A DNA stretch of 45,137 bases from an uncultured Granulosicoccaceae bacterium (GTDB lineage Bacteria > Pseudomonadota > Gammaproteobacteria > Granulosicoccales > Granulosicoccaceae): NCBI GenBank assembly GCA_938020525.1, contig CALIHW010000072.1, positions 1-45,137 of the forward strand, read 5' to 3'. The notes under the pieces were generated by a model that worked only from the letters and a program-made list of their open reading frames with translations, searched no databases and was not told the DNA's origin. Below are positions 11,873-34,898 of the stretch, piece after piece (within the stretch, counting starts at the first letter, position 1; each line of letters starts with the position of its first letter). Made by a program: the position numbers and the translations under genes.

Positions 11873-11900
11873 TTTTTAAGGGTTGGTTTTTAAGGGTTGG
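11873..11900 (-). repeat. Perfect 14-bp tandem duplication at the fdhD stop
   Basis: TTTTTAAGGGTTGG occurs twice back to back (11873-11886, 11887-11900), followed by a degenerate third start (TGTTTAAG). The fdhD stop codon (TAA, 11892-11890) lies within the second unit, so its last codons and stop were copied downstream. The unit is not a multiple of three, so the copy is out of frame. Confidence 0.85.
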
Positions 11901-12783
11901 TGTTTAAGTCCAACATGCCTTTTGTAGGTGGTGGCACAATTCGTTTTTGAGGAATTGCATCAAGCTCAACGCAGTCTGCGCCGTGGTATACCAGAAAGTG
12001 TTTACCTTTAGCACGGGCGATCATTGTCAGGCCAAGATGTTCTGCCAGCTCAAGCCCCATGTGAGTAACACCTGATCGGGAAACCAGGGCTGGTATGCCC
12101 ATGAAAGCGGTTTTCATAACGATCTCCGAAGTCAGGCGTCCTGTGGTATAAAAAACTTTGTCTGAACCATCAATGCCATCAAGCCACATGTGTCCTGATA
12201 CTGCGTCTGCAGCGTTGTGTCTGCCAACATCTTCAACGTGTATTAATGATTTGGTACCGTGACATAGAGCGCAGCCGTGCACAGCACCGGCACTTCTATA
12301 GATATCATTGAGCTTACCAACCTCACGAATCATTTCGTAGAGTTCTGATTGCTTAATGTTCGCCTGTGGCAGAACAACTTCATACAGCTTGTCTATCGTG
12401 CAACTGAAAATTGTGCCCTGGCCGCAGCCGCTGGTTACAATTTTGCGATTCAGTTTTTCCTGCCAGTCTTCAATGCCGTTGCCAGCTCTGGTTTCAACAA
12501 CTACCAGCTCACGATCCCAGTCAACATGGATAGAGACAATGTCTTCAATGTCTTCAATTAGTTTTTGATTGCGTACATAGCCAAGGGTAAGTGCCTCTGG
12601 CTGTGAGCCGAGAGTCATTAGTGTGACTATCTCTGTATCGTCAATACGGATAGTCAGCGGAAATTCACCGGGGATTTGTTGCTCGGTTTGCTCACCGTAC
12701 TCATTGACGACTGTGACCGGGTGGGTCGGTCGCAGCCCGGATTGACTCATCTCTGGTCGGTATTGTGAGTTGTTCTGTGCCAC
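11890..12783 (-). CDS. fdhD: Formate dehydrogenase accessory sulfurtransferase FdhD
   Basis: 297 residues. FdhD passes sulfur from the cysteine desulfurase to the Mo/W-bisPGD cofactor before insertion into formate dehydrogenase. Visible: FPLTIRIDD, TSGCGQGT around Cys 120, GAVHGCALCHG at 166-176, EDVGRHNAADA at 184-194 and the late FMGIPALVSRSG region. In E. coli the loop equivalent to TSGCGQG carries a C-x-x-C pair; here only the first Cys is kept, and a separate C-A-L-C pair sits at 171-174, a variant seen in other FdhD proteins. It diverges from the formate dehydrogenase gene set that starts at about 13.07 kb. Confidence 0.94.
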   Translation of the reverse strand: MAQNNSQYRPEMSQSGLRPTHPVTVVNEYGEQTEQQIPGEFPLTIRIDDTEIVTLMTLGSQPEALTLGYVRNQKLIEDIEDIVSIHVDWDRELVVVETRAGNGIEDWQEKLNRKIVTSGCGQGTIFSCTIDKLYEVVLPQANIKQSELYEMIREVGKLNDIYRSAGAVHGCALCHGTKSLIHVEDVGRHNAADAVSGHMWLDGIDGSDKVFYTTGRLTSEIVMKTAFMGIPALVSRSGVTHMGLELAEHLGLTMIARAKGKHFLVYHGADCVELDAIPQKRIVPPPTKGMLDLNTNP

Positions 12784-17229: not shown

Positions 17230-20145
17230 ATGAAACTCACAAGAAAGACAAACTCGGAAGCGCATGGTCATCAAGGCGATGATTCAGGTGTAGGCCTAAG
17301 TGCTCGAAATGGCTTGTTCGGTCGGGCGGTTAATCGCCGGACGTTCTTGCGCCACTCAGGTGTTACAGCGGGTGGAGCTGCTTTGGCCACCGTTGCAGCG
17401 CCTGCAATGGTTAAAAAAGTTCGCGCTGCTGAAACATCTCCCAAAGATGGCGTTGAAACAGAAATCAAACTATCTGTCTGTACACACTGTTCTGTAGGTT
17501 GCGGTGTTGTAGCAGAAGTTCAGGACGGAGTCTGGACAGGGCAGGAGCCTGACTATGACTCTCCACTTAACATCGGTGGTCACTGTGCCAAAGGTGCTTC
17601 TATAAGAGAGCACGGACACGGTGAAAAGCGCGTCAAGTACCCGATGAAACTCACTGACGGCAAATGGAAGAAAGTCAGCTGGGAAGAAGCGATTGAAGAC
17701 ATCGGTGATCAGATGCTTTCAATTCGTGAAGAATCCGGTCCTGATTCTGTTTACTGGCTGGGCTCTGCAAAGTTTAATAATGAACAGTCTTACATGTTCA
17801 GAAAATTCGCAGGCATGTGGGGTACTAACAACGTAGACCACCAGGCGCGAATCTGTCACTCCACCACGGTTGCAGGGGTTGCTAACACCTGGGGCTATGG
17901 TGCAATGACCAACTCATACAACGACATGCACAATTCGAAAGCGATGTTCTTCATCGGCTCGAATGCAGCAGAAGCGCACCCGGTTGCCATGCAACACATT
18001 TTGCGTGCTAAAGAAAACGGTTCAAAGCTTATTGTGTGTGATCCGCGTTATACACGTACCGCTGCGCACGCAGATCAGTTTTTGCGCTTCCGTCCCGGTA
18101 GTGACGTTGCATTGATCTGGGGTATGTTATGGCATGTATTTGAAAACGGCTGGGAAGATAAGGAGTTCATCCAGCAGCGCGTTTACGGCATGGAAGAAAT
18201 CAAAGCTGAAGTAGCCAAGTGGAATCCTGCAGAAGTTGAGCGTGTCTCTGGTGCGCCAGAAGCAGAGGTTAAGCTCGCTGCACAAACCATGGCTGAGAAC
18301 CGACCGGGCACCATTGTCTGGTGTATGGGTGGTACGCAACACACTATCGGTAACAACAATACCCGTGCTTACTGTGTACTGCAGTTGGCTCTGGGTAACA
18401 TGGGTGTCTCTGGTGGTGGTGCGAATATCTTCCGCGGCCACGACAATGTTCAGGGTGCTACTGACTTCTGCATTCTTTCTCATTCTCTGCCTGGCTACTA
18501 CGGTTTGTCAGCTGGTTCGTGGAAGCACTGGTCATCTGTCTGGGGTGTCGATTACGAGTGGATGAAAACCCGCTTTGATTCCGGTAGTTATGAAGAAGCC
18601 GGTGGCAAGCCAGCCAGTCCGATGAATACTAAGGGTATGCCAGTGTCGCGCTGGATAGATGGTGTTCTTGAAGATCGCGGCAACATTGCTCAAAAAGATA
18701 ACATTCGTGCAATGGTGCTTTGGGGGCATGCGCCAAACAGTCAGACCCGTGGGCCTGAAATGAAAGAGGCGATGGAGAAGCTTGATCTGATGGTAATCAT
18801 CGATCCTTATCCAACTCACTCGGCAGTTCTGCCAGACCGTAAAGACGGTGTTTATATTCTGCCGGCAACGACGCAGTTCGAAACCTATGGTTCCGTGACC
18901 GCCTCTAATCGTTCACTGCAATGGCGTGAGAAAGTAATCGATCCGTTGTTTGAGTCTCTACCTGATCACACCATCATGTACAAGCTTGCCAAGAAATTTG
19001 GTTTCGCAGATGAGTTTACTGCCAATATCGCTGTAAATGATGATGAGCCCTTGATTGAAGACATCACAAGAGAATTCAACACGGGTATGTGGACAATTGG
19101 CTACACCGGTCAAAGTCCTGAGCGTTTGAAAGCACATAAGGAACACCGCAGTACTTTTAATACCACTACTCTGCAAGCTGAAGGTGGTCCGCTTGATGGT
19201 GAGTATTACGGTATGCCGTGGCCATGTTGGGGAACTCCTGAAATGAAGCACCCCGGTACACCGCTTCTGTATGACACCAGTAAGTCTGTGGCAGAGGGTG
19301 GTTTGAATTTCCGTGCACGATTCGGTGTTGAACGTAACGGTGAAAGCCTGTTGGCAGAAGGTTCCTACTCTGTGGGTGCTGAGATCGAAGATGGTTATCC
19401 TGAATTTACCCATGAAACTCTAAAGTCACTCGGCTGGTGGGAAGACCTCACTGACGACGAGAAGACTGCGGCTGAAGGTAAAAACTGGAAGACCGATCAG
19501 TCCGGTGGTATTCAGCGTGTTGCAATCAAGCACGGTTGTGCACCATTCGGTAACGCCAAGGCGCGTGCCGTAGTCTGGACATTCCCCGATCCGGTACCGA
19601 TTCACCGCGAGCCGTTATATACGAATCGTCGCGATCTGGTTGCCGACTACCCGACCTACGAAGATCGTAAGTCGCACTATCGATTGCCGACCAGATACGC
19701 ATCGATTCAGGAAGAAGACTTTTCAGAAGACTTCCCTCTTATTCATACCAGTGGTCGACTGGTCGAATACGAAGGTGGTGGTGATGAGTCGCGCTCTAAT
19801 CCGTGGCTTGCAGAACTACAGCAGGACATGTTCGTAGAGATCAATCCGGCAGACGCAAATGACGCAGGTGTTGATGACGAGCAGATGGTCTGGGTTGAAA
19901 GTCCGGAAGGTGGCAAGATTAAAGTTAAAGCGATGGTCACGCCCAGAGTCGGGCGCGGGGTAGTATTTACTCCGTTCCACTTTGCCGGTCACTTTGAAGG
20001 CGAAGATCTCGAAGGCAAGTATCCTGAAGGTACCGCACCGTATGTTCGTGGTGAGGCGGCTAATACCGCATTTACCTACGGCTACGATTCCGTCACACAA
20101 ATGCAAGAGTCGAAAGTTACGCTCTGCAAAATCTACTCGGCTTAA
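17230..20145 (+). CDS. fdhA: Formate dehydrogenase catalytic subunit (Mo/W-bisPGD, Cys type)
   Basis: 971 residues. A Tat signal is near the N-terminus (NRRTFLRHSG, about 36-45), followed by the proximal [4Fe-4S] motif C-x2-C-x3-C (CTHCSVGC, about 84-91) with its fourth Cys in GGHCAKG. The metal ligand and catalytic pair is Cys209-His210 in ARICHSTTV; many FDHs have selenocysteine here, but this gene uses a TGT codon. C-terminal molybdopterin-binding features include HTSGRLVEYEGGG and TPFHFAGHF. It oxidises formate to CO2 in the periplasm with FdhB and FdhC. The closest type is the membrane-anchored three-subunit Fdh; electrons should go to quinone. RBS AGGGGAA precedes ATG. Confidence 0.96.
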   Translation: MKLTRKTNSEAHGHQGDDSGVGLSARNGLFGRAVNRRTFLRHSGVTAGGAALATVAAPAMVKKVRAAETSPKDGVETEIKLSVCTHCSVGCGVVAEVQDGVWTGQEPDYDSPLNIGGHCAKGASIREHGHGEKRVKYPMKLTDGKWKKVSWEEAIEDIGDQMLSIREESGPDSVYWLGSAKFNNEQSYMFRKFAGMWGTNNVDHQARICHSTTVAGVANTWGYGAMTNSYNDMHNSKAMFFIGSNAAEAHPVAMQHILRAKENGSKLIVCDPRYTRTAAHADQFLRFRPGSDVALIWGMLWHVFENGWEDKEFIQQRVYGMEEIKAEVAKWNPAEVERVSGAPEAEVKLAAQTMAENRPGTIVWCMGGTQHTIGNNNTRAYCVLQLALGNMGVSGGGANIFRGHDNVQGATDFCILSHSLPGYYGLSAGSWKHWSSVWGVDYEWMKTRFDSGSYEEAGGKPASPMNTKGMPVSRWIDGVLEDRGNIAQKDNIRAMVLWGHAPNSQTRGPEMKEAMEKLDLMVIIDPYPTHSAVLPDRKDGVYILPATTQFETYGSVTASNRSLQWREKVIDPLFESLPDHTIMYKLAKKFGFADEFTANIAVNDDEPLIEDITREFNTGMWTIGYTGQSPERLKAHKEHRSTFNTTTLQAEGGPLDGEYYGMPWPCWGTPEMKHPGTPLLYDTSKSVAEGGLNFRARFGVERNGESLLAEGSYSVGAEIEDGYPEFTHETLKSLGWWEDLTDDEKTAAEGKNWKTDQSGGIQRVAIKHGCAPFGNAKARAVVWTFPDPVPIHREPLYTNRRDLVADYPTYEDRKSHYRLPTRYASIQEEDFSEDFPLIHTSGRLVEYEGGGDESRSNPWLAELQQDMFVEINPADANDAGVDDEQMVWVESPEGGKIKVKAMVTPRVGRGVVFTPFHFAGHFEGEDLEGKYPEGTAPYVRGEAANTAFTYGYDSVTQMQESKVTLCKIYSA

Positions 20146-21078: not shown

Positions 21079-21165
21079 CCTAGCGCTACATCCTTGTTAC
21101 ACCGAACGGCACTGAAGGCAATAAGTACTAAAAATCGAGTACTAAATAATCGGGGGATACAATTC

Positions 21166-22296
21166 ATGAAAGTAAAAGACCTACCCAAAAATCATCCGGC
21201 ACGTATAAAGAGACGCAAGCGCATTGCTGTCTTGACTTTTGCCTTCATTATGTTGGCGGCACTGCTAGCACCGTTTAGTGGCTTCCTGTTGAGTGGCCAG
21301 TTTATAGGTAGTGCAGTGGCACAGGAGAAAAGCGCTGACTCTAATCCACGTGCGGACTACTGGCGCGCAGTGAAGGGTGGCGTTGGTGGTTACAGTGCGA
21401 TCAAAGGGCCCGAGACCGGTGTGCTAACACAAAGCGCAGGTGTCGATTGGGCAAACTTTCGGCGTGGACCCATAGTTAAATATGCTCCTTGGGCGATTGC
21501 GGGTATGTTTTTAGTGATCCTGTTGTATCACCTGTTACATGGCAAAAACAAACTTACGCACAGACCTTCCGGTGTGATGGTAAAACGCTGGTCCTGGTTT
21601 GAGCGACTGGTGCACTGGACAACAGCGATATCTTTTATCGTTCTGGCGGTGACCGGTATGAGCATGCTGCTCGGCCGGACTCTGCTGCTGCCGCTGTTTG
21701 GCGGTTTGCAGGGCGGTAAAGCAGCCTATGCAGCATGGGCGCAATTTTCTATACAACTGCACAATGTAATGGGTCCGGTCCTGAGTGTTGGTATTGTGTT
21801 GATGATTGTTATGTGGATCTGGCATAACTTTCCGTCAAAGGGTGACTGGGGCTGGATTAAAGCTGGTGGCGGTATTATTGGTGACAAGCACCCAAGCGCC
21901 GGGCGAATGAACTTTGGTGAAAAGATCTGGTTCTGGATTATTGCTACCTTTGGCATGGCGGTAGTCATCACCGGACTGTTGATGGTTGCACCGAGCTTTC
22001 CTTCATTGCAGGCGTTGCTTCCAATACCAATTACACGTGGAATGATGCAGGATGCCAATGTCTGGCATGTGGTTGCAGGTATCATCTGGATGACTGTTGC
22101 TATCGGTCATATCTATATCGGTACTGCGGGCACAGAGGGTGCGTTTCAGGGGATGTCAACCGGTTACGTATCTGCTGAGTGGGCGGAGCAGCATCATAAT
22201 CTTTGGTTCTACAAGATGAGAAGACAGGGCAAGGTGGCACGACACCCTGATCGATATGCTAGAGGTCACGGTGCGATAAGGCAGCGTTCCTTATAG
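21166..22296 (+). CDS. fdhC: Formate dehydrogenase cytochrome b (gamma) subunit
   Basis: 376 residues from the ATG at 21166 (GGGGGA upstream). An N-terminal hydrophobic segment (about 22-44) is followed by a periplasmic stretch. Four main membrane spans of a FdnI/FdoI-type di-heme cytochrome b then follow, starting after WFERLVHWTTAISF. Candidate heme b histidines are in RLVHW, IQLHNVMG, VWHVVAGIIW and IGHIYIGTAGTEGAF. It anchors FdhAB to the membrane and passes electrons to quinone. Longer than FdnI (217), with the extra N-terminal domain found in proteobacterial FdhC. A clear terminator ends the operon. Confidence 0.93.
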   Translation: MKVKDLPKNHPARIKRRKRIAVLTFAFIMLAALLAPFSGFLLSGQFIGSAVAQEKSADSNPRADYWRAVKGGVGGYSAIKGPETGVLTQSAGVDWANFRRGPIVKYAPWAIAGMFLVILLYHLLHGKNKLTHRPSGVMVKRWSWFERLVHWTTAISFIVLAVTGMSMLLGRTLLLPLFGGLQGGKAAYAAWAQFSIQLHNVMGPVLSVGIVLMIVMWIWHNFPSKGDWGWIKAGGGIIGDKHPSAGRMNFGEKIWFWIIATFGMAVVITGLLMVAPSFPSLQALLPIPITRGMMQDANVWHVVAGIIWMTVAIGHIYIGTAGTEGAFQGMSTGYVSAEWAEQHHNLWFYKMRRQGKVARHPDRYARGHGAIRQRSL

Positions 22297-26435: not shown

Positions 26436-26921
26436 GTGGTGCGCCGAGCATGGCGCGAAGCGCCATGGTTGGCGTTTATAAGTGGTAAGTGAAAGCGAAC
26501 CACGAAGTGACTTGGAGGTGAAAGTCCTCTGGGAGCCTTGATAACAGGAACCCCTAGCTGAACAGCAAGTGCAACATCGTGAGGTGTTGTGTGAAGGAAG
26601 CTGCAGGCAAAGCTCTGGCCTGACGAACAGGAACTGTATATAAGGCATGAGATGCGGGGTGAGGGAGCCAAAAAGTCTGAAGCCCGATGTTATCCAGAAC
26701 GCACTTATGTAGATGCAGCAGGTATATGGAGTGAAGGTCACGCGTCTTACCTCGGGAGGTCTGTCGACTTGCCCGCGGGGCTACCACTGCTGAGAGGTAG
26801 TGGGATGATTTGGCAGAAGTCAGCAGAGGCCATAGTAGTTTGATGCACCATCGAACGAAGGGCCGAACAGGAAGAACAGACATGTTCTATCAGTTTCGAT
26901 GATGGGTGGTGAGGCAGAAAG

Positions 26922-28304
26922 TTGGATAGAAGTCCAACACAGACAACCGAATGCTTTGATGGCAGTACCATCGAAGCTCGCCGGTCTGTGCCACAAGCCG
27001 ATCCGGCAACTGATAGCTCTACGTGTCGTGCGTCAATGGAGTTGATGGAAGAGGTGGTGTGCCGCGAGAACTTATTAGCGGCATGGGCGCGAGTCAAACG
27101 CAATCGAGGTGCTGCAGGAATCGACGACATGTCAGTCGACGATTTGATGCCGTATTGTCGAGAGCATTGGCCGCGTATAAAGAAGTTGTTATTGTCAGGG
27201 CACTATCGTCCGCAAGCAGTGAAACGGGTAGTTATCCCAAAAGCTGCCGGTGGTGAACGTGTTCTGGGTATTCCGACGGTTCTTGACCGTTTGATTCAAC
27301 AAGCGTTACTGCAGATACTGCAACCCATTTTTGACCCCCACTTCTCGGACAACAGCTACGGTTTTCGTCCGGGTCGAAGTGCACACGATGCCGTCTTGGC
27401 TGCCCGTGGGCACGTACGTGCTGGTCACCGTTGGGTAGTTGATGTCGATCTGGAATCGTTCTTTGATCGAGTTAACCACGACATGCTGATGGCACGAGTG
27501 GCAAGACGAGTAAAGGACAGACGAGTGTTGCGCCTTATCCGCCTGTATTTGCAGGCAGGTATGTGCGATGGAGGTGTGGTGAGTGTGCGAACAGAGGGAA
27601 CGCCGCAAGGCGGACCGTTGTCGCCGCTGTTGTCGAACATCCTACTTGATGAGTGGGATCGGGAGCTTGAAAAACGAGGTCACCGTTTTGCCCGTTATGC
27701 TGATGATTGCAATATTTATGTGCGCTCAGAAGCGGCAGGTGAAAGGGTCATGGCCTCGGTGAGACGGTTTCTTGAACGTCGGCTACGTCTTCAAATCAAT
27801 GAGTCGAAGAGTCAGGTTGCGCGTCCCTGGAACGTCAAGTTTCTGGGCTACAGCATGACTATACATCGTGTGACAAAGCTCAAACCGGCACCGGCCTCGG
27901 TGAGACGGTTTAAAGCCAAGTTACGTGATTGTTTCCGTCGGGGTCGAGGCCAGTCAATAGGCCGAGTGGTTGCAGAGCTAGCACCCATTCTGCGAGGTTG
28001 GATCAACTACTTCAAATTAAGTGATGTTAAGGGCGTCTTTGAGGATCTAGATCAGTGGCTACGCCGCCGGTTACGGGTCATTATATGGCGACAGGCGAAG
28101 CGTGCGCGAACACGTGTGCGCATGCTACGCCGACATGGCATTGATGAAAAGCGTGCTAAGGCTTCTTCCAGCAATGGCCGTGGCCCTTGGTGGAATGCTG
28201 GGGCAAGCCACATGAATCAAGCCTTCCCTAAACGTTTCTTCCATGCTTTAAGGCTTGTGTCCCTCTTTCAAACTTACTCCAGACTTCGTGAATGTTCTGC
28301 TTGA
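26922..28304 (+). CDS. ltrA: Group II intron reverse transcriptase/maturase
   Basis: Intron-encoded protein of up to 460 residues from the TTG at 26922 (GAGG 7 nt upstream); an ATG at 27036 would give 422 and also starts before the RT domain. RT motifs: NRGAAGIDDMSVDDL, QALLQILQPIFDPHFSDNSY, YGFRPGRSAHDA, VVDVDLESFFDRVNH, GTPQGGPLSPLLSN, and the catalytic ARYADDCNIYV. The maturase domain X follows (LAPILRGWINYFKLS, then LRRRLRVIIWRQ). It stops after FFHALRLVSLFQTYSRL, so there is no DNA-binding/HNH endonuclease domain, as in class C. It binds the intron RNA for splicing and copies it into DNA at new sites. Confidence 0.95.
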   Translation: MDRSPTQTTECFDGSTIEARRSVPQADPATDSSTCRASMELMEEVVCRENLLAAWARVKRNRGAAGIDDMSVDDLMPYCREHWPRIKKLLLSGHYRPQAVKRVVIPKAAGGERVLGIPTVLDRLIQQALLQILQPIFDPHFSDNSYGFRPGRSAHDAVLAARGHVRAGHRWVVDVDLESFFDRVNHDMLMARVARRVKDRRVLRLIRLYLQAGMCDGGVVSVRTEGTPQGGPLSPLLSNILLDEWDRELEKRGHRFARYADDCNIYVRSEAAGERVMASVRRFLERRLRLQINESKSQVARPWNVKFLGYSMTIHRVTKLKPAPASVRRFKAKLRDCFRRGRGQSIGRVVAELAPILRGWINYFKLSDVKGVFEDLDQWLRRRLRVIIWRQAKRARTRVRMLRRHGIDEKRAKASSSNGRGPWWNAGASHMNQAFPKRFFHALRLVSLFQTYSRLRECSA

Positions 28305-28336
28305 ACCGCCGTGTACGGAACCGTACGCACGGTGGT
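28303..28336 (+). ncRNA. Group II intron domain V
   Basis: 34-nt hairpin starting in the RT stop codon: ACCGCCGTG pairs with CACGGTGGT, with a two-base CG bulge, then TACG/CGTA capped by GAAC. This is the catalytic core fold of group II ribozymes. Confidence 0.88.
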
Positions 28337-28392
28337 GTGGGAGGAGGTGGTGGTAACATCACCTCCTACCCGATATACCAGCCTGCCATAGT

Positions 28393-28437
28393 TTTTAGAC
28401 AGCGAGGGCTTTTAGACAGCAAGGGCTTTTAGCCTGC
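28393..28437 (-). repeat. 17-bp tandem repeat at the stop of the thioredoxin-like gene
   Basis: TTTTAGACAGC-AGGGC-type units at 28393-28409 and 28410-28426 (one mismatch), then a partial third (TTTTAGCCTGC, 28427-28437) that contains the gene's TAA. Another 3'-end duplication, here out of frame. Confidence 0.85.
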
Positions 28438-28833
28438 AATAGCTTTATCGAAAAGCTTCGCTATTGCATCAGAGCTTGTTTGGGCAATTACCCGGTCAAT
28501 CTCGGCTCCGTCTTTGAACATGACCAGCGTGGATTGACGTCTTATGCCCAAATCCTTGGTGAACTGATCGTCTCTGTACAAATCCCAATCAACTCTCATT
28601 ACAGTCACGGCCTGGTAGGCCTCGTTGTCATCGATTAGTGCACTCACGGTGCGCTCTTGAGATCGACAGACGGGTCACCAGTTGGCGGAAAAATCGAGCA
28701 GGAATGGCTCGCCGCTCTCAAGTGCCGCCTCGTACGCCTCCGGAGTAAAATCAATTTTTTTGCTGCTCTCAGCCCATGTCGGGGAAGTTGCAAATGCTAG
28801 TGCAGAGAGAGCCAGAAACTGGCGTCTTTTCAT
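28429..28833 (-). CDS. Thioredoxin-like protein with in-frame TGA at the first active-site Cys (candidate selenoprotein)
   Basis: Two same-frame open segments (28833-28678 and 28674-28429) are separated by a single TGA at 28677-28675. Read through, they give a 134-residue protein: Tat signal (KRRQFLALSALAF) cleaved near T-W-A, then LLDFSANW-[TGA]-PVCRSQERTVSALIDDN, then VMRVDWD and STLVMFKDG. The TGA therefore replaces the first Cys of the thioredoxin W-C-x-x-C, giving W-U-P-V-C if decoded as selenocysteine. Everything else of the fold is intact on both sides; the cis-Pro position is Ser. ATG at 28833 has AGAGGA upstream. The periplasmic redox role is inferred. The alternative is a pseudogene by nonsense mutation. 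Confidence 0.65.
28629..28668 (-). promoter_or_regulatory. Possible bacterial SECIS hairpin
   Basis: Just after the TGA, the mRNA can form a 7-bp lower stem (UGUCGAU 28668-28662 with AUCGAUG 28635-28629, two G-U pairs). An asymmetric internal loop and an upper stem follow (GCAC/GUGC, 28652-28649 with 28643-28640). The 5-nt apical loop CGUGA contains the GU expected for SelB. The apical loop begins 26 nt after the TGA, within the usual bacterial spacing. Hand-folded only. Confidence 0.35.
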
Positions 28834-28931
28834 TGTGTGTCCTCTGGATTTCTCAGTATCAAGGTACTGTAATCTATCAGACATGACCGTTTTTCTGAAG
28901 TTCCGCCGGGAGTTCCAAAGCCGGGCAATTG

Positions 28932-29717
28932 TTAGCCGACGAATGCTTTCTCCATAACAAAGGTGCCCGGACGACTATTCGAACCTTCTTGCAGGCCGTG
29001 TTTTTCACAGATTGTCTTCATGTCTTTGTTCAGGCCCATAGAACCGCAAATCATGACGCGATCAGTGTCCGGGTTCAGTGGTTCAACACCAATGTCATTA
29101 AAAAGCTGTCCGCTCTCGATGAGCTGGGTAATGCGGCCTTGCGGGGTAAATTCTTCCTGGGTGATTGTCGGGTAGTAGCGAACTCTGGGTGTAGCAAGTT
29201 CGCCGATCAAGGGATCATCCGGCAAGCTGCTGATGAGCTGTTGGCTGTAGCCGAGCTCTTCGACCTGTCTGCAGGTGTGTGTTAGTACAATTTCATCAAA
29301 GCGGTCGTAGAGATCGGGATCACGAATAAGAGATGCAAAAGGAGCGACGCCTGTGCCTGTGGCAAACAGATACAATCGTTTGCCCGGGAGCAGAGCATCC
29401 AGCACCAATGTGCCGACTGGTTTTTGTTGCACAATGATCCTGTCACCGACTTTGATGTTCTGCAGTTTCGAGGTGAGTGGGCCGTCCTGTACTTTGATGG
29501 AATAGAATTCAAGTTCATCGTCCCAAGAGGGGCTCGCAATTGAGTAAGCACGTTTGAGCGGCTTTGCAGTGTCATCTGGCAGGCCGATCATTGTAAACTC
29601 ACCAGAGCGAAATCTGAGGCTTGCCGGGCGAGTCACGCGAAACGAAAACAGTTTGTCGTTCCAGTGCGTTACTTCGGTGACGGTTTGCGAGTCAGGGGAT
29701 TGGGATTGCTGGTTCAT
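28932..29717 (-). CDS. fpr: Ferredoxin-NADP+ reductase
   Basis: 261 residues, matching bacterial Fpr (about 250-260). It swaps electrons between NADPH and ferredoxin or flavodoxin through FAD. Motifs: RAYSIASPSWDDELEFYSI (FAD binding, about 75-93), GPLTSKLQ, FATGTGVAPFASLIRD (NADP pyrophosphate, about 118-133), VMICGSMGLNKDM near 222-234, and the family C-terminus FVMEKAFVG. It lies 98 bp upstream of the candidate Sec-thioredoxin on the same strand, so the two could share a transcript, although Fpr is cytoplasmic and the thioredoxin is predicted to be exported. Confidence 0.95.
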   Translation of the reverse strand: MNQQSQSPDSQTVTEVTHWNDKLFSFRVTRPASLRFRSGEFTMIGLPDDTAKPLKRAYSIASPSWDDELEFYSIKVQDGPLTSKLQNIKVGDRIIVQQKPVGTLVLDALLPGKRLYLFATGTGVAPFASLIRDPDLYDRFDEIVLTHTCRQVEELGYSQQLISSLPDDPLIGELATPRVRYYPTITQEEFTPQGRITQLIESGQLFNDIGVEPLNPDTDRVMICGSMGLNKDMKTICEKHGLQEGSNSRPGTFVMEKAFVG

Positions 29718-29856: not shown

Positions 29857-31137
29857 ATGAAAATTGAACTCGCCTTCGGGCAGTCCGGGCTGGAAGTGGA
29901 TCTGCCCGAGCAGGTCAAGCCGACCGTATTACGTAAGCCAGCCATGGATGCAAGCAGGCCGGCTGCGGACATAATTCAGCAGGCGCTGGATAACCCGATT
30001 GGTACAGACAGTCTGGCTGTGCTTGCGCAGGGTTCGAAAACAGCCTGCATTCTAATCTGCGATATCACCCGTCCGGTGCCGAACGGTGAATTCCTGCAGC
30101 CGGTAATCAGGCTTTTGATGGATGCTGGCGTGCCTAAGGCGGGTATTACGGTTTTGGTCGCTACCGGATTACATCGTCCGAACCTGGATGCGGAACTCGA
30201 AGAGCTAATCGGTGATCCCTGGGTGCAACAAAATGTGCGGGTAGAAAATCATTATGCTCGCGATGAAGATAGCTGCGTGCATCTTGGGGTCACAAAAGAA
30301 CATGCAGTACCGGTTGGGCTCAACAGGCTGTTTGTTGATGCGGATGTGAAAATTGCAACCGGTTTGGTTGAGCCGCACTTTATGGCGGGCTATTCGGGGG
30401 GGCGCAAAGTAATTGCCCCGGGAGTTGCGCATCATGAAACTATCCGTACCTTCCACAGCGCGCGCTTTATGGAACATCCGCTAGCAACTTCCTGTGTTTT
30501 GGATGGCAATCCCTTGCATGAAACGCAGCTTGAAATAGTACAGCTGCTGAGTGGTCCGGTATTAAGTCTAAATACGGTACTTGATGAACATCGTAATCTG
30601 GTGCATGCCACTTTCGGTGAGGTGGTAGAAAGTCATCTGCAAGCGGTGCAGTTTGCACGTGGGAGTTGCGAGTTGTCTGTTGGAAGAAAATTCAAAACCA
30701 TACTCACTTCATCTGCCGGTTACCCACTAGATAAGACCTACTATCAAACCGTGAAAGGTATGGTGACTCCATTGGGAATACTTGAAGATGGAGGCGACCT
30801 GATTATTGTGTCAGAGTGTTCTGAAGGGTTTGGTTCAGAAGAGTTTTGTGATGCACAGAAGCGCTTGGTCGAACTTGGGCCGGAAGGGTTCCTTGACTCA
30901 ATAGCAGAGAAATCACTGGCAGATGTCGATGAATGGCAAACCGAAATGCAGTTAAAGCCAATGCGTATTGGCAGAATTAAATTGTTTGCACCCAAGCTTG
31001 GTGCTGACCCATCTGCAATGACGGGTGTTGAGCCTGTTGAAAATCTCACTGCCGCAATCAGGGAGAGTGTCGTGCGTCATAGGGATAGAGATATCGCGAT
31101 TATTCCTGAAGGACCTTACGTTGTGCCATTCACATAG
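29857..31137 (+). CDS. larA: LarA-family nickel-pincer racemase/epimerase
   Basis: 426 residues, homologous to lactate racemase LarA. Catalytic residues can be placed with the same numbering as the Lactobacillus enzyme: Arg72 (DITRP), His106 (ATGLHRP), His174 and Lys184 (EPHFMAGYSGGRK; Lys forms the covalent cofactor link), plus Gln297 and Lys300 (TYYQTVKGM). LarA enzymes use a Ni-pyridinium dithio-mononucleotide to racemise or epimerise 2-hydroxyacids. Substrate cannot be read from sequence; the D-2-hydroxyacid dehydrogenase at the operon end suggests a 2-hydroxyacid. First gene of the operon, divergent from fpr; followed by larC after 18 bp. Confidence 0.92.
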   Translation: MKIELAFGQSGLEVDLPEQVKPTVLRKPAMDASRPAADIIQQALDNPIGTDSLAVLAQGSKTACILICDITRPVPNGEFLQPVIRLLMDAGVPKAGITVLVATGLHRPNLDAELEELIGDPWVQQNVRVENHYARDEDSCVHLGVTKEHAVPVGLNRLFVDADVKIATGLVEPHFMAGYSGGRKVIAPGVAHHETIRTFHSARFMEHPLATSCVLDGNPLHETQLEIVQLLSGPVLSLNTVLDEHRNLVHATFGEVVESHLQAVQFARGSCELSVGRKFKTILTSSAGYPLDKTYYQTVKGMVTPLGILEDGGDLIIVSECSEGFGSEEFCDAQKRLVELGPEGFLDSIAEKSLADVDEWQTEMQLKPMRIGRIKLFAPKLGADPSAMTGVEPVENLTAAIRESVVRHRDRDIAIIPEGPYVVPFT

Positions 31138-31155
31138 ATTGGTATTGTAAAGTCT

Positions 31156-32415
31156 ATGGATAAACATAAGCATATTGTGCGGATTGATCTGGCGCCATTG
31201 GGTGGGATCGCAGGTGATATGTTTGCGGCTGCAATGTTTAACGGATTTCCGCACCTTTATGATTACTTTTGTGATGATTTAAACTTGCTGGGTATTGAAG
31301 GGCTATCTGCAACGATCGAAGATCGACTATCCAACGGGCTTCAAGCGAAGTACTTCAATGTTCAACAGCAGACAACACTAAATCCACCCCGTACTCTGGC
31401 GGCAGTAAAAGAGTTTTTTTACAATAAACCGTTAGATGAGTCTGTTGCTAATCATGCGGTTGGGATTTTCACCAAGCTTGCACAGGCTGAGAGTGAAGTA
31501 CACGGCAAGTCGATTGAGACGATACATTTTCATGAAGTCTCTGACTGGGATTCCGTGATCGATATACTGGCGGCAGCCGGAGTTATCGCCCGCCTTAAGT
31601 GTTCTGTCTGGCGCGTTGGCGTTCTTCCACTCGGTGCCGGCACAGTTAATACTGCGCACGGTGATATTCCGGTTCCGGCACCCGCGACCCTTGCATTGTT
31701 AAAAGATTTTCAGTGGCAGGATGATGGAATTAGTGGTGAGCGGGTTACACCAACCGGGGCTGCCATCCTCTGTTACCTGCAGGCAACCGATGCTGGGGCA
31801 GGAACTACAGCAGCCAGTCTTGTGACTGTTGGTAGTGGTTGTGGTAGCCGGGACCTAAATGGACGGGCCAATATCCTTCGGATGACGGCATTTTCCACCA
31901 GAGCTGTGGACACGGCATCGCGATCACCCTTGTTACTGGAAGATAACGGGTTGCTTGAAGATAAAGTGACCGTAGTAGCGTTTGAAGTCGATGATATGAC
32001 AGCGGAAGAAATTGCATGGGCTGCCGATGAGATACGTGCCGTTGACGGGGTGTTGGATGTTAGCTGTCAAAGCATGCAAGGTAAGAAAAACAGAGTGTCC
32101 ATCGGATTTAGAATTACTACATCCCCCGAACATTTGCACGCCGTGGTTGATCAGTCTTTTTTATTAACCTCAACAATAGGAATTAGGTACAGTCATTTGG
32201 CGCGTTTTGTTTTGCGGCGTTCTGAAGACACTGTAGAAAGCACCAATGTCAAAGTAGTTGAGAGACCTGCAGGGATAATCTCTGCTAAAGCATCAAGTGA
32301 TGATCTTGCATCTGCGGTGTCTCTTGATGAACGACGTCGACTGGCACAGGTGGTATGTAATAAAGCTCTGCAATCTAATAACCATTGCCATAACAATGAT
32401 GAAGACAAGCAGTGA
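31156..32415 (+). CDS. larC: Nickel insertion protein LarC
   Basis: 419 residues. LarC is a CTP-dependent cyclometallase that puts Ni into the pincer cofactor. Family motifs: LGGIAGDMFAAA (about 15-26), IHFHEVSDWDSVIDI (about 124-138), NTAHGDIPVPAPATLALL (about 165-182), and a C-terminal half with VVAFEVDDMTAEE. In some species LarC is split by a programmed frameshift; here it is one continuous frame. The C-terminus is His/Asn-rich (NNHCHNNDED), a plausible metal-binding tail. Its TGA overlaps the larE GTG by 4 nt. Confidence 0.93.
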   Translation: MDKHKHIVRIDLAPLGGIAGDMFAAAMFNGFPHLYDYFCDDLNLLGIEGLSATIEDRLSNGLQAKYFNVQQQTTLNPPRTLAAVKEFFYNKPLDESVANHAVGIFTKLAQAESEVHGKSIETIHFHEVSDWDSVIDILAAAGVIARLKCSVWRVGVLPLGAGTVNTAHGDIPVPAPATLALLKDFQWQDDGISGERVTPTGAAILCYLQATDAGAGTTAASLVTVGSGCGSRDLNGRANILRMTAFSTRAVDTASRSPLLLEDNGLLEDKVTVVAFEVDDMTAEEIAWAADEIRAVDGVLDVSCQSMQGKKNRVSIGFRITTSPEHLHAVVDQSFLLTSTIGIRYSHLARFVLRRSEDTVESTNVKVVERPAGIISAKASSDDLASAVSLDERRRLAQVVCNKALQSNNHCHNNDEDKQ

Positions 32416-33251
32416 AATCTAAATCAGACAGCAGGGAGGTATTAGAAAAAATACTCTGTCAGCGTACAGATGATCTGTATATCGCATTGAGTGGCGGCAT
32501 AGATAGCATCACATTGATGCGTGTCGCAGCTGAAATTCGCGCAGCTCCGACTGTTGCAATGCACGCTGTGTCTGCGGCTGTACCTGCTGAGGCTACCAAT
32601 CGCTGTCGTGAGCTTGCATCACGCTACAACTGGCGGCTAGTGCAGATTGATGCAGGTGAGTTTAATGACAGGCAATATGTCTCTAATCCGGTTAATCGAT
32701 GCTATTACTGCAAGAGTCGTCTATTCGATAGCATTAAGGCGCAGCTCGAAGGCAACTATTGCATTGCGACCGGCACCAATACCGACGATCTTGGTGACTA
32801 TCGTCCAGGCCTTAAAGCTGCAGGCGAACGGGATGTATGGCAACCCTATGTCGAAGCCGGTATAGATAAGCAAGCTATTAGAGATCTGGCGCTGCAATAT
32901 GACCTGGGAGTTTTATCGCAAATGCCGGCACAGCCGTGCTTATCCAGTCGCATAGAAACGGGGATAAAAATTGATACCGATGACCTTGCGTTTGTGCACA
33001 GGCTGGAGCGCAAGCTAGCTGAACAACTAGGTGATGGAGATATACGCTGTCGTATTTTGAGTGGAGGAGTTGTTGTGCAGTTGCCAGCTGACAGTGTCGT
33101 ATTTAATAGTGTTGTTCAGCGTCAGTCGATAGAAAAACTAATTAGTACATACTGCGAGGTGTCAGCGCGCCGCCTGATAAAGATTGAACCCTACAAGATG
33201 GGTAGCGCTTTTTTGCTTGCGGCTTCTGTAGAGGTCCATAAGCGATCATGA
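32412..33251 (+). CDS. larE: Sacrificial sulfur transferase LarE
   Basis: 279 residues of the PP-loop ATP pyrophosphatase class. It sulfurates the pyridinium dicarboxylate made by LarB. Motifs: ALSGGIDSITLM (P-loop, 25-36), NRCYYCKSRLF (95-105), and QPCLSSRIETG with Cys at 176, the same position as the sacrificial Cys of the Lactobacillus enzyme, so a one-Cys, sulfur-donating type rather than the [4Fe-4S] type is likely. GTG start overlaps larC by 4 nt; its own TGA overlaps the larB ATG by 4 nt. Tight coupling supports balanced expression. Confidence 0.93.
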   Translation: MKSKSDSREVLEKILCQRTDDLYIALSGGIDSITLMRVAAEIRAAPTVAMHAVSAAVPAEATNRCRELASRYNWRLVQIDAGEFNDRQYVSNPVNRCYYCKSRLFDSIKAQLEGNYCIATGTNTDDLGDYRPGLKAAGERDVWQPYVEAGIDKQAIRDLALQYDLGVLSQMPAQPCLSSRIETGIKIDTDDLAFVHRLERKLAEQLGDGDIRCRILSGGVVVQLPADSVVFNSVVQRQSIEKLISTYCEVSARRLIKIEPYKMGSAFLLAASVEVHKRS

Positions 33252-33916
33252 TCAACGAAATTAACTTTGACTGGCATCGCGGTGAACGCACAGGTATTGC
33301 GGAAGCCGTGCTTTGTAGTCATAAAAGCAAGTCGCAGGTTATTGAAATTGTCGCGCGTGCGCAGAAAAAAAATCAGTCTCTTCTTTTAACACGGCTCAGT
33401 GTTGAAATCGCAGAGTGTTTGCAGCAAACATATCAGAATATCGACTGGCATTTACTGTCTGCAACAGCTTTTGTAGACAATGGAATAAAGTCACCAGTTG
33501 ATTCTGATTGCATTATTGTGACTGCGGGAACTTCAGATGTACCTGTTGCTGAGGAAGCAAGGCGCACGCTGTTGTTCAATGGTCTTAAAGTAACTGTTTT
33601 GCACGACTGTGGTGTCGCCGGTTTATGGCGACTCACTGATCAGCTTCCTGTATTATCCAAAGCGCCTGTAATCATTGCTGTAGCCGGAATGGAAGGTGCG
33701 CTTTTTTCCGTGTTGGCAGGGTTGGTGCCGGGGCTCGTTATAGCAGTGCCCGGTTCTACGGGCTATGGTGTTTCTGAGGGAGGCCATGTAGCGTTAAACA
33801 GTGCGTTGTCTGCATGTGCGCCAGGTGTTGTAGTTGTGAACATTGACAATGGTTTTGGTGCAGCTTGCGCGATGTTGAAGCTGCTATCGCAACGACAATT
33901 GTTAGAAGACTGTTAG
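33248..33916 (+). CDS. larB: Nickel pincer cofactor carboxylase LarB
   Basis: 222 residues; PurE-like carboxylase that converts nicotinate adenine dinucleotide to pyridinium-3,5-biscarboxylate mononucleotide, the first step of the Ni-pincer cofactor. The PurE-like core is visible: IIVTAGTSDVPVAEEARRTL (about 88-107), VLHDCGVAGL, IAVAGMEGALFSVLAGLV, and VPGSTGYGVSEGG. pncB elsewhere in the window feeds the same NaMN/NaAD pool. ATGA overlap with larE. Confidence 0.93.
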   Translation: MINEINFDWHRGERTGIAEAVLCSHKSKSQVIEIVARAQKKNQSLLLTRLSVEIAECLQQTYQNIDWHLLSATAFVDNGIKSPVDSDCIIVTAGTSDVPVAEEARRTLLFNGLKVTVLHDCGVAGLWRLTDQLPVLSKAPVIIAVAGMEGALFSVLAGLVPGLVIAVPGSTGYGVSEGGHVALNSALSACAPGVVVVNIDNGFGAACAMLKLLSQRQLLEDC

Positions 33917-33956
33917 CAAGATGTATTTCAACAAGAACTGAATCACAGAGAAGACT

Positions 33957-34898
33957 ATGAAGCCATCAGTGGTATTGGTTAATCCTATCTTTGCTCCGAC
34001 ACAGAAAGAATTTGAAGAGACCTATGTTGTACACAAACTGTGGGAGGCGAATGATAAGGCTAAGTTTCTCGCTGAAATTTCTAATGATGTTCGTGTTGTT
34101 GCGACCGATGGTGGGTCAGGTGCAAGTGCTGAATTACTAAGGCAGTTACCCAATGTAGAAGTTATCACTGTATTTGGCGTGGGTGTTGATGCGGTTGATT
34201 TGGACTACTGCAAAGCTAAAGGTATACGGGTCGGGAATACTCCCGATGTACTTTCGGATGATGTCGCTGATTTGGCTGTGGCTCTTTGTCTTGCCACTTA
34301 TCGCCAGATTCCTACGGGTCATGAATATGCGAAGACAGGGCAATGGGAAACCCACGGCCCGATGCAGTTGACGTCAAAATTTTCCGGTAGTCGCGTCGGT
34401 ATTTTTGGCCTTGGTCGTATCGGTCTTGTGATTGCCAGACGTCTACAGGGATTTGATTGCCAAATTAGTTATTGCAATCGGAATCAGCGCGACGATGTGG
34501 AGTACAAGTATTTTTCCGATATTCGTGAAATGGCCGAAGCAGTGGATTGTCTGATTCTGGCTGTCGCACCAACACCGGATATGGCAGGCTTTGTAAGCAC
34601 CGATGTGTTGGCAGCGCTCGGACCGACAGGGCATATCGTCAATATCTCGAGAGGACTTGTCATCGATGAAGATGCGTTGATTGAAGCACTGGCTGAAAAA
34701 AAGATCGCAGGTGCGGGTCTTGATGTATTTGCTAATGAGCCAACTATTCCTGAAGCGCTTAGATCACAGCCCAATGTTGTGCTACAGCCACATGTGGCCA
34801 GCGGTACCGTGCAAACCAGAACTGCAATGGGAAAATTAATGCTCAAAAATCTTTCGAATTTTCTTAACGGTGATGAATTGGTAGCCTTTGTTGCATAG
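33957..34898 (+). CDS. D-2-hydroxyacid dehydrogenase (glyoxylate/hydroxypyruvate reductase type)
   Basis: 313 residues. NAD(P)-binding GLGRIG at 151-156; catalytic Arg232 (NISRGLVIDEDAL), Glu261 (DVFANEPTIP) and His279 (LQPHVASGT) are all present. The family interconverts 2-oxoacids and D-2-hydroxyacids. The residues after the second strand of the dinucleotide fold read YCNRNQRDD; an Arg two positions after Asn is often seen with NADPH preference, but this is only suggestive. It follows larB by 40 bp in the same direction, so is likely the last gene of the lar operon and could use the D-isomer made by LarA. Confidence 0.88.
   Translation: MKPSVVLVNPIFAPTQKEFEETYVVHKLWEANDKAKFLAEISNDVRVVATDGGSGASAELLRQLPNVEVITVFGVGVDAVDLDYCKAKGIRVGNTPDVLSDDVADLAVALCLATYRQIPTGHEYAKTGQWETHGPMQLTSKFSGSRVGIFGLGRIGLVIARRLQGFDCQISYCNRNQRDDVEYKYFSDIREMAEAVDCLILAVAPTPDMAGFVSTDVLAALGPTGHIVNISRGLVIDEDALIEALAEKKIAGAGLDVFANEPTIPEALRSQPNVVLQPHVASGTVQTRTAMGKLMLKNLSNFLNGDELVAFVA

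What the first reader, a model, noticed from the sequence alone, without database searches (positions are those of the whole stretch)
28429..28833. Candidate selenocysteine thioredoxin: TGA exactly at the first active-site Cys
Seen: a thioredoxin-like gene has a single in-frame TGA and it falls on the first Cys of W-C-x-x-C (W-TGA-P-V-C-R). The Tat signal and LLDFSAN lie before it and about 80 well-formed codons follow (VDWD, STLVMFKDG). Nonsense mutations are unlikely to hit this one codon by chance, and U-x-x-C thioredoxin-fold selenoproteins are known from marine metagenomes. Inference: a periplasmic Tat-exported Sec oxidoreductase. The FdhA in this window uses Cys, so Sec decoding here would serve a redox protein rather than the usual formate dehydrogenase.
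Basis: partly seen in the sequence, partly recalled or inferred. Interest (0 to 1): 0.88.

Follow-up and report, generated by a model that had tools for sequence, protein, structure and literature searches.

The report
Exported selenocysteine thioredoxin in marine bacteria
This bacterium very probably makes a small exported thioredoxin-like protein in which the usual stop signal UGA is read as the selenium amino acid selenocysteine at the active site; such proteins are known in general, and this is a new, well-supported subfamily of them.

Summary
On the minus strand (28833 to 28429) lies a 134-codon Trx-fold gene with a Tat-like leader and one in-frame UGA, at the first active-site position (W-U-P-V-C). 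The genome carries tRNA-Sec, SelA, SelB and SelD. Twenty-five copies, this one included (17 genomes of the family plus two named records), have UGA at this codon; 15 homologues have Cys codons. Just downstream a short segment is almost frozen at synonymous sites (0.96 against a median of 0.46), folds as a hairpin where a bacterial SECIS belongs, and is missing from the Cys genes. UGA forms track tRNA-Sec (16 of 17 genomes, against 2 of 16 with only UGA-less forms). No UGA was found in the matched stretches of three FdhA-like loci, so Sec decoding serves at least the two copies of this thioredoxin. Most likely job: a periplasmic thiol/selenol reductase. Cys relatives sit beside ccdA (14 of 15 loci); near the 17 copies of this genus none was seen, so the electron donor is open. 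Verdict: a new, well-supported member of the known UxxC selenoprotein class. Selenium itself was not measured.

The parts
28429..28833 (-). Sec-thioredoxin gene, 134 codons plus TAA
   Evidence: PF00085 above cut-off; model pLDDT 88.3, Trx fold
28675..28677 (-). UGA at codon 53 read as selenocysteine, first position of WUPVC
   Evidence: UGA at this codon in 25 of 25 stop-bearing copies read, Cys codon in the 15 of 15 other rows read
28636..28656 (-). candidate bacterial SECIS hairpin: 7-position stem with one A-C mismatch in this copy, 5-nt loop CGUGA beginning after 26 nt from the UGA
   Evidence: no consensus hairpin in the 15 Cys rows
28771..28833 (-). twin-arginine (Tat-like) leader MKRRQFL...TWA, 21 residues
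   Evidence: read from the sequence; Arg 3 and Arg 4 nearly invariant in the 40-row alignment; no predictor run
28840..28845 (-). ribosome-binding-like AGAGGA, 6 nt before ATG
   Evidence: by eye
28932..29717 (-). neighbour: FAD/NAD-binding oxidoreductase (ferredoxin-NADP reductase-like), upstream in the same direction; present in the fetched flanks of 11 of 25 UGA loci
   Evidence: Pfam FAD_binding_6 and NAD_binding_1; tblastn; the FNR name is inference

Best explanation
A selenoprotein. The Sec machinery (SelA, SelB, SelD, tRNA-Sec) reads the UGA at codon 53 as selenocysteine, directed by a hairpin whose loop begins after 26 nt. The product is a small thioredoxin-fold protein with a Tat-like leader, so probably folded before export and working in the periplasm with a W-U-x-x-C site. 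Most likely it acts as a thiol/selenol reductase of oxidised periplasmic proteins, Sec attacking the substrate and the second Cys resolving. Shown by comparison: UGA conservation, SECIS-like element, machinery, predicted Trx fold. Inferred: export, direction of the reaction, substrate, electron donor. The confidence below is for Sec decoding of this UGA; for the reductase role I put about 0.6.
For: tRNA-Sec 73.4 bits over a cut-off of 47, also by ARAGORN; SelB 385 bits, SelD 234, SelA 543, each over the curated cut-off. Of the 14 control genomes 5, 2, 2 and 1 pass those cut-offs for tRNA-Sec, SelB, SelD and SelA. UGA at the same codon in 25 copies, Cys codon in 15. Synonymous identity at codons +8 to +11 is 0.96, the highest of 83 four-codon windows, median 0.46 (range chosen). 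Stem pair 24-40 is G-C in 21 and A-U in 4 of 25 rows. An RNA model of the element has two strong places in the genome, 72.3 and 68.1 bits, both these thioredoxin genes (both in the model's own alignment); the next are 18.1 and 15.6 bits (150 of 1767 candidates scored). tRNA-Sec in 16 of 17 UGA-form genomes against 2 of 16 with only UGA-less forms, Fisher p 2e-6; selB 15 of 17 against 0 of 16, p 1.5e-7 (kinship not corrected for). dN/dS downstream of the UGA 0.11-0.22 in five of six pairs; the sixth was saturated.
Against: The 48-nt stretch of this copy folds no better than shuffles (z +0.39); 15 of 23 distinct rows have a mismatch inside the stem, and two of the five covariation measures do not beat the shuffles (pairs changed on both sides 278 of 500, pair types 500 of 500). 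The hairpin alone is -6.1 kcal/mol in 14 of 25 rows, weaker than the -7.5 bound of a published model; by the 48-nt fold 4 of 25 rows miss that bound and this copy (-8.4) meets it. Covariation rests on one pair in four rows. G003 has the UGA gene but no tRNA-Sec or SelB found (84% complete); G012 has no SelB at E<=1e-60. The cis-proline position is Ser. No ccdA of the partner type was found in this genome (no positive control in that call). Nothing here measures selenium.
Confidence: 0.93

Rival explanations
1. Pseudogene or sequencing/assembly error: a true Cys codon damaged to UGA.
For: The genome is a draft in 224 contigs.
Against: Same UGA in 25 copies, including two records on 5.7-Mb contigs; purifying selection after the UGA; no other in-frame stop.
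Confidence: 0.01
2. The organism has reassigned UGA in general (as Cys or Trp), no Sec involved.
For: UGA at a Cys position alone would fit.
Against: Six of the 25 UGA genes themselves end with TGA in my reading (G014, G007, G016b, G013b, G005a, G004b); Sec machinery present; the hairpin goes with the UGA. A genome-wide count of in-frame UGAs was not made.
Confidence: 0.01
3. It is a selenoprotein, but not a reductase: a selenol peroxidase, a disulfide isomerase/oxidase, or a metal- or selenium-handling protein.
For: Ser at the cis-proline position in 38 of 40 rows; no ccdA in the fetched flanks of the 17 copies of this genus and none of that type found in this genome; the second copy lies beside a DsrE-like gene; of two annotated Cys relatives looked at, the Paracoccus one has no ccdA next door.
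Against: Cys relatives sit beside ccdA, the usual partner of periplasmic reductants (recalled), in 14 of 15 loci and in Methylobacterium, and they too have the Ser.
Confidence: 0.3
4. Conditional truncation: UGA mainly terminates, and read-through is a selenium or redox switch.
For: SECIS-directed decoding is not fully efficient (recalled).
Against: A 52-residue product would lack the active site; selection after the UGA is about as strong as before it.
Confidence: 0.03

Closest known systems
Thioredoxin (Trx) UxxC selenoprotein, PF00085, listed as experimentally verified in the 2026 catalogue (PMC13188914, Table 1, sections read)
   Same: PF00085, Sec at the first position of UxxC
   Different: Here a Tat-like leader, Ser at the cis-proline position, far below the thioredoxin equivalog cut-off (41.6 against 96.8 bits). 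The catalogue's own sequence was not on hand, so no direct comparison was made.
GOS Trx-like 1 (COG0526, UxxC, 321 sequences; PMC2398784, passages seen); Sargasso Sea thioredoxin, 11 UxxC sequences (PMC1088965, passages seen)
   Same: Marine Trx-like UxxC selenoproteins; this family may overlap them
   Different: Broad groups; the passages seen describe neither this lineage nor export
Cys 'thioredoxin family protein' beside CcdA, Methylobacterium indicum plasmid
   Same: Similar length, hydrophobic leader by eye, 40.4% identity over residues 19-132, QSTL in place of the cis-Pro motif
   Different: CxxC, no UGA; ccdA next door
Edwardsiella thioredoxin-like proteins, 5zf2 and 5zpv
   Same: Best solved structures: 5zf2 by fold (TM 0.90 by target length), 5zpv by sequence; also QSTL
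   Different: Cys active site; 30-31% identity; biological role not compared

Membership tests
Bacterial selenoprotein (UGA-Sec) | In-frame UGA aligned with Cys in homologues | tested here: met
   25 UGA and 15 Cys rows at one column
Bacterial selenoprotein (UGA-Sec) | selA, selB, selC, selD in the genome | tested here: met
Bacterial selenoprotein (UGA-Sec) | bSECIS geometry: loop 3-9 nt, upper stem at least 4 bp, G in the first two loop positions, 16-37 nt after UGA (PMC13188914, section 5 read) | tested here: met
   Loop CGUGA 5 nt, stem 4 bp plus 2 beyond a mismatch, G at loop position 2, spacing 26 nt
Bacterial selenoprotein (UGA-Sec) | bSECIS energy <= -7.5 kcal/mol (same source) | tested here: inconclusive
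   -8.4 for the 48-nt fold, -6.1 for the hairpin alone; no better than shuffles
Bacterial selenoprotein (UGA-Sec) | Selenium in the protein | not testable with these tools
   needs 75Se or mass spectrometry
Thioredoxin fold, PF00085 | Score over the Pfam cut-off and Trx fold | tested here: met
   44.9 against 23.5 bits
Classical thioredoxin (TIGR01068) | Equivalog cut-off | tested here: not met
   41.6 against 96.8 bits
Classical thioredoxin (TIGR01068) | Conserved cis-proline (feature recalled) | tested here: not met
   Ser in 38, Gly in 1, Ala in 1 of 40 rows; position read from alignments
Named NCBIfam selenoprotein families | Match over a curated cut-off | tested here: not met
   One selenoprotein model listed, TsoB, 20.8 against 805 bits; none of the 10 families listed passes its cut-off
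CcdA-linked periplasmic thioredoxins | ccdA adjacent | tested here: not met
   None in the window; 5 of 25 UGA loci and 14 of 15 Cys loci have it in the fetched flanks
Tat-exported proteins | Functional twin-arginine signal | not tested
   Motif by eye only

The most novel reading that the evidence does not exclude
Gaining Sec let this exported thioredoxin drop its ancestral membrane electron donor CcdA: in the window's genus it became a stand-alone, in several genomes duplicated, periplasmic selenoenzyme with a cis-Ser active site (perhaps a peroxidase or a selenium/metal handler), and it is a main reason why the Sec machinery is kept in a lineage whose formate dehydrogenase uses Cys.
Probability: 0.15. 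Interest if true: 0.65.

Novelty: new member of a known kind. Interest (0 to 1): 0.5.

Why it matters
It shows Sec decoding kept by a Granulosicoccaceae-type lineage for an exported thioredoxin while the FdhA in the window uses Cys. It gives a set of Sec/Cys swaps in close relatives (with Cys forms nested among Sec forms) and a short, nearly frozen SECIS, so what Sec buys a periplasmic redox protein can be tested directly. In routine annotation such genes would be cut at the UGA (inference).

Tried and rejected
Pseudogene, sequencing error and general UGA reassignment were rejected (see rivals). Formate dehydrogenase as the reason for Sec: three FdhA-like loci, none with a stop in the matched stretches, none over the family's cut-off. 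Two weak extra hits of the SECIS model were looked at: L111 lies in another open frame and looks like chance; L110 (18.1 bits) has a UGA with an open frame of some 85 codons after it and only about 25 before it, no likeness to this thioredoxin that I could see, and was not scanned for families. The rest of the selenoproteome was not surveyed. Thermodynamic stability alone does not support the hairpin. A class sample gave 3 of 369 genomes with a match at E<=1e-28, the own one and two without UGA (at most 11 candidates per genome scored, so it can miss). The plasmid collection gave 98 records with relatives under 60% identity (10 listed, 2 opened). Three partial Planctomycetota hits were not followed.

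Papers: selenocysteine + Granulosicoccus, 0; Tat signal + thioredoxin + selenoprotein, 0; selenoprotein + Bugula neritina, 2 of other subject by title. Searches were seen as listings; four papers were opened, PMC9312934 by passages only.

Rows dropped: 12 of the 14 gammaproteobacterial loci (L058-L068, L070) were left out of the 40-row set because they are the same genes as G-handle loci (same positions, identities); the short G023 fragment and matches weaker than E 1e-20 were left out too.

Full report
What is there. The gene runs on the minus strand from ATG 28833 to TAA 28429 with a single UGA at codon 53. With UGA read as a residue it is a 134-residue protein, PF00085 over the cut-off, predicted as a thioredoxin fold with mean pLDDT 88.3 (best solved match by fold 5zf2). 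The leader MKRRQFLALSALAFATSPTWA is Tat-like by eye.

Is Sec decoded in this genome? It holds tRNA-Sec (ARAGORN), SelB, SelD and SelA, each over its cut-off. At E<=0.001 weak matches ring in 14 of 14 control genomes for tRNA-Sec, SelB and SelD, so only the cut-offs count; 5, 2 and 2 controls pass them, and 1 for SelA. SelA and SelB lie on one contig (C48).

Comparative evidence. In 48 genomes of the family, 39 matches at E<=1e-20 fall in 33 genomes: 23 with one UGA, in 17 genomes, and 16 without, in 16 genomes. By genus: 13 of 14 genomes of the window's genus, the one of g2 and all three of g4 carry the UGA form; six genomes have two copies, the window's own among them (second copy C83:41491-41883). 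I read these 23 and two named Gammaproteobacteria records (OY282378, OY282353): the UGA is on the first active-site codon in 25 of 25; in the 15 UGA-less rows read (of 16) that codon is TGT or TGC.

Machinery and gene go together: tRNA-Sec in 16 of 17 UGA genomes, 2 of 16 genomes with only UGA-less matches, and 1 of the 15 without a match; SelB (E<=1e-60) in 15, 0 and 1 (Fisher tests, which ignore kinship). Exceptions: G003 (no tRNA-Sec, no SelB), G012 (no SelB), G022 and G041 (tRNA-Sec with Cys form).

The SECIS. At codons +8 to +11 after the UGA identical amino acids use identical codons in 0.96 of pairs, the top of 83 windows (median 0.46). I chose this range after seeing the per-codon table, in which the Cys genes show no such peak. 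The 25-row alignment folds to a hairpin at columns 23-41 with an invariant CGUG in the loop. Of the cells 90.1% pair, 1 of 500 shuffles reaching that; sliding the partner lowers it to 3.7-69.6%; cells changed on both sides and the covariation score are each reached by 1 of 500 shuffles, but pairs changed on both sides by 278 and pair types by 500 of 500. One pair changes on both sides (G-C 21, A-U 4 rows). The 15 Cys rows yield no consensus pair. Against: single-sequence stability is unremarkable, a mismatch sits in the stem of 15 of 23 distinct rows, and the amino acids are conserved here too. The model made from these rows gives two high scores in the genome, both in the thioredoxin genes (150 of 1767 candidates scored).

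Evolution. In a tree of 44 rows the Sec label needs 4 changes (bootstrap 3-4; starred branches force only 1, so one origin is not ruled out). Three Cys rows (G041, G038, G039) fall in a group with five Sec rows at 91/84 support; 15 Cys rows form a group at 98/94, and the long Methylobacterium row stands alone. The bootstrap had not settled, and the tree does not decide between losses and repeated gains. G041 still has tRNA-Sec.

Function. Cys homologues are next to a 237-residue CcdA-type (DsbD_TM) membrane gene in 14 of 15 loci; among UGA loci 5 of 25 have it (G003, one copy each in G004 and G005, and the two OY records), and none of the 17 of the window's genus within the fetched flanks (flanks differ, 1.5 kb or more as a rule, less where contigs end). 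Of two annotated alphaproteobacterial Cys relatives, Methylobacterium has CcdA next door and Paracoccus has not; both lie beside a sigma-70-family factor and a DUF1109 gene. A search of the window's genome with such a CcdA found nothing; that call had no positive control, though the same query finds the relatives' genes, and a more distant DsbD was not tested. In the genus the neighbour is instead an FAD/NAD oxidoreductase, in 11 of 25 UGA loci, but it faces the other way in some (L064, L070) and has no reason to be in the periplasm, so I do not make it the donor. The cis-proline position is Ser in 38 of 40 rows. I recall work in which loss of cis-Pro lets thioredoxins bind metal; it was not read here.

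Known or new. A 2026 review (PMC13188914: abstract, section 5, parts 1 and 2 of the 3 of section 7, and passages) lists 119 prokaryotic selenoprotein families or subfamilies, among them Trx (PF00085, UxxC) and several Trx-like ones; the GOS and Sargasso Sea papers (passages) list Trx-like UxxC groups. So Sec thioredoxins are a known kind. No NCBIfam model claims this one, and the searches found no paper on it in this lineage; most subscription journals are not in that library.

Odds. Sec decoding of this UGA 0.93; reductase role about 0.6; the boldest reading (Sec replacing the CcdA link) 0.15.

Noticed in passing
window 26573-28374, + strand: Group II intron parts (26573-26746, 26781-26863 and 28304-28374) flank a 460-aa ORF at 26922-28304 (presumably its reverse transcriptase, not scanned); the last part ends about 55 bp beyond the 3' end of the Sec-thioredoxin gene.
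   Followed up: partly
window 29857-34895, + strand: LarA-type (lactate racemase) gene, nickel-insertion (LarC-type) gene and an AIR-carboxylase-domain (LarB-like) gene close together, then a D-2-hydroxyacid dehydrogenase: looks like a nickel-pincer cofactor cluster (Lar names partly inferred).
   Followed up: no
window 17230-20145, + strand: Formate dehydrogenase alpha-like ORF of 971 aa with Cys (RICHSTT) where Sec forms have U; FdhD at 11890-12783 and a cytochrome b561-type gene at 21094-22293 nearby.
   Followed up: partly
G041 and G022 (unnamed relatives): tRNA-Sec present although the thioredoxin uses Cys and no SelB was found at E<=1e-60: possible remnants of lost Sec decoding, or incomplete assemblies.
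   Followed up: no
G013:C44:16326-17331 (L050): Two Sec-thioredoxin genes in tandem, each with its own UGA and hairpin segment.
   Followed up: partly
L047 2913-3362: A DsrE-like gene lies beside the second Sec-thioredoxin copy of this genome.
   Followed up: no
L110 about 1501 (G000:C3:55539): Weak SECIS-model hit with a UGA followed by an open frame of some 85 codons; may be chance.
   Followed up: partly
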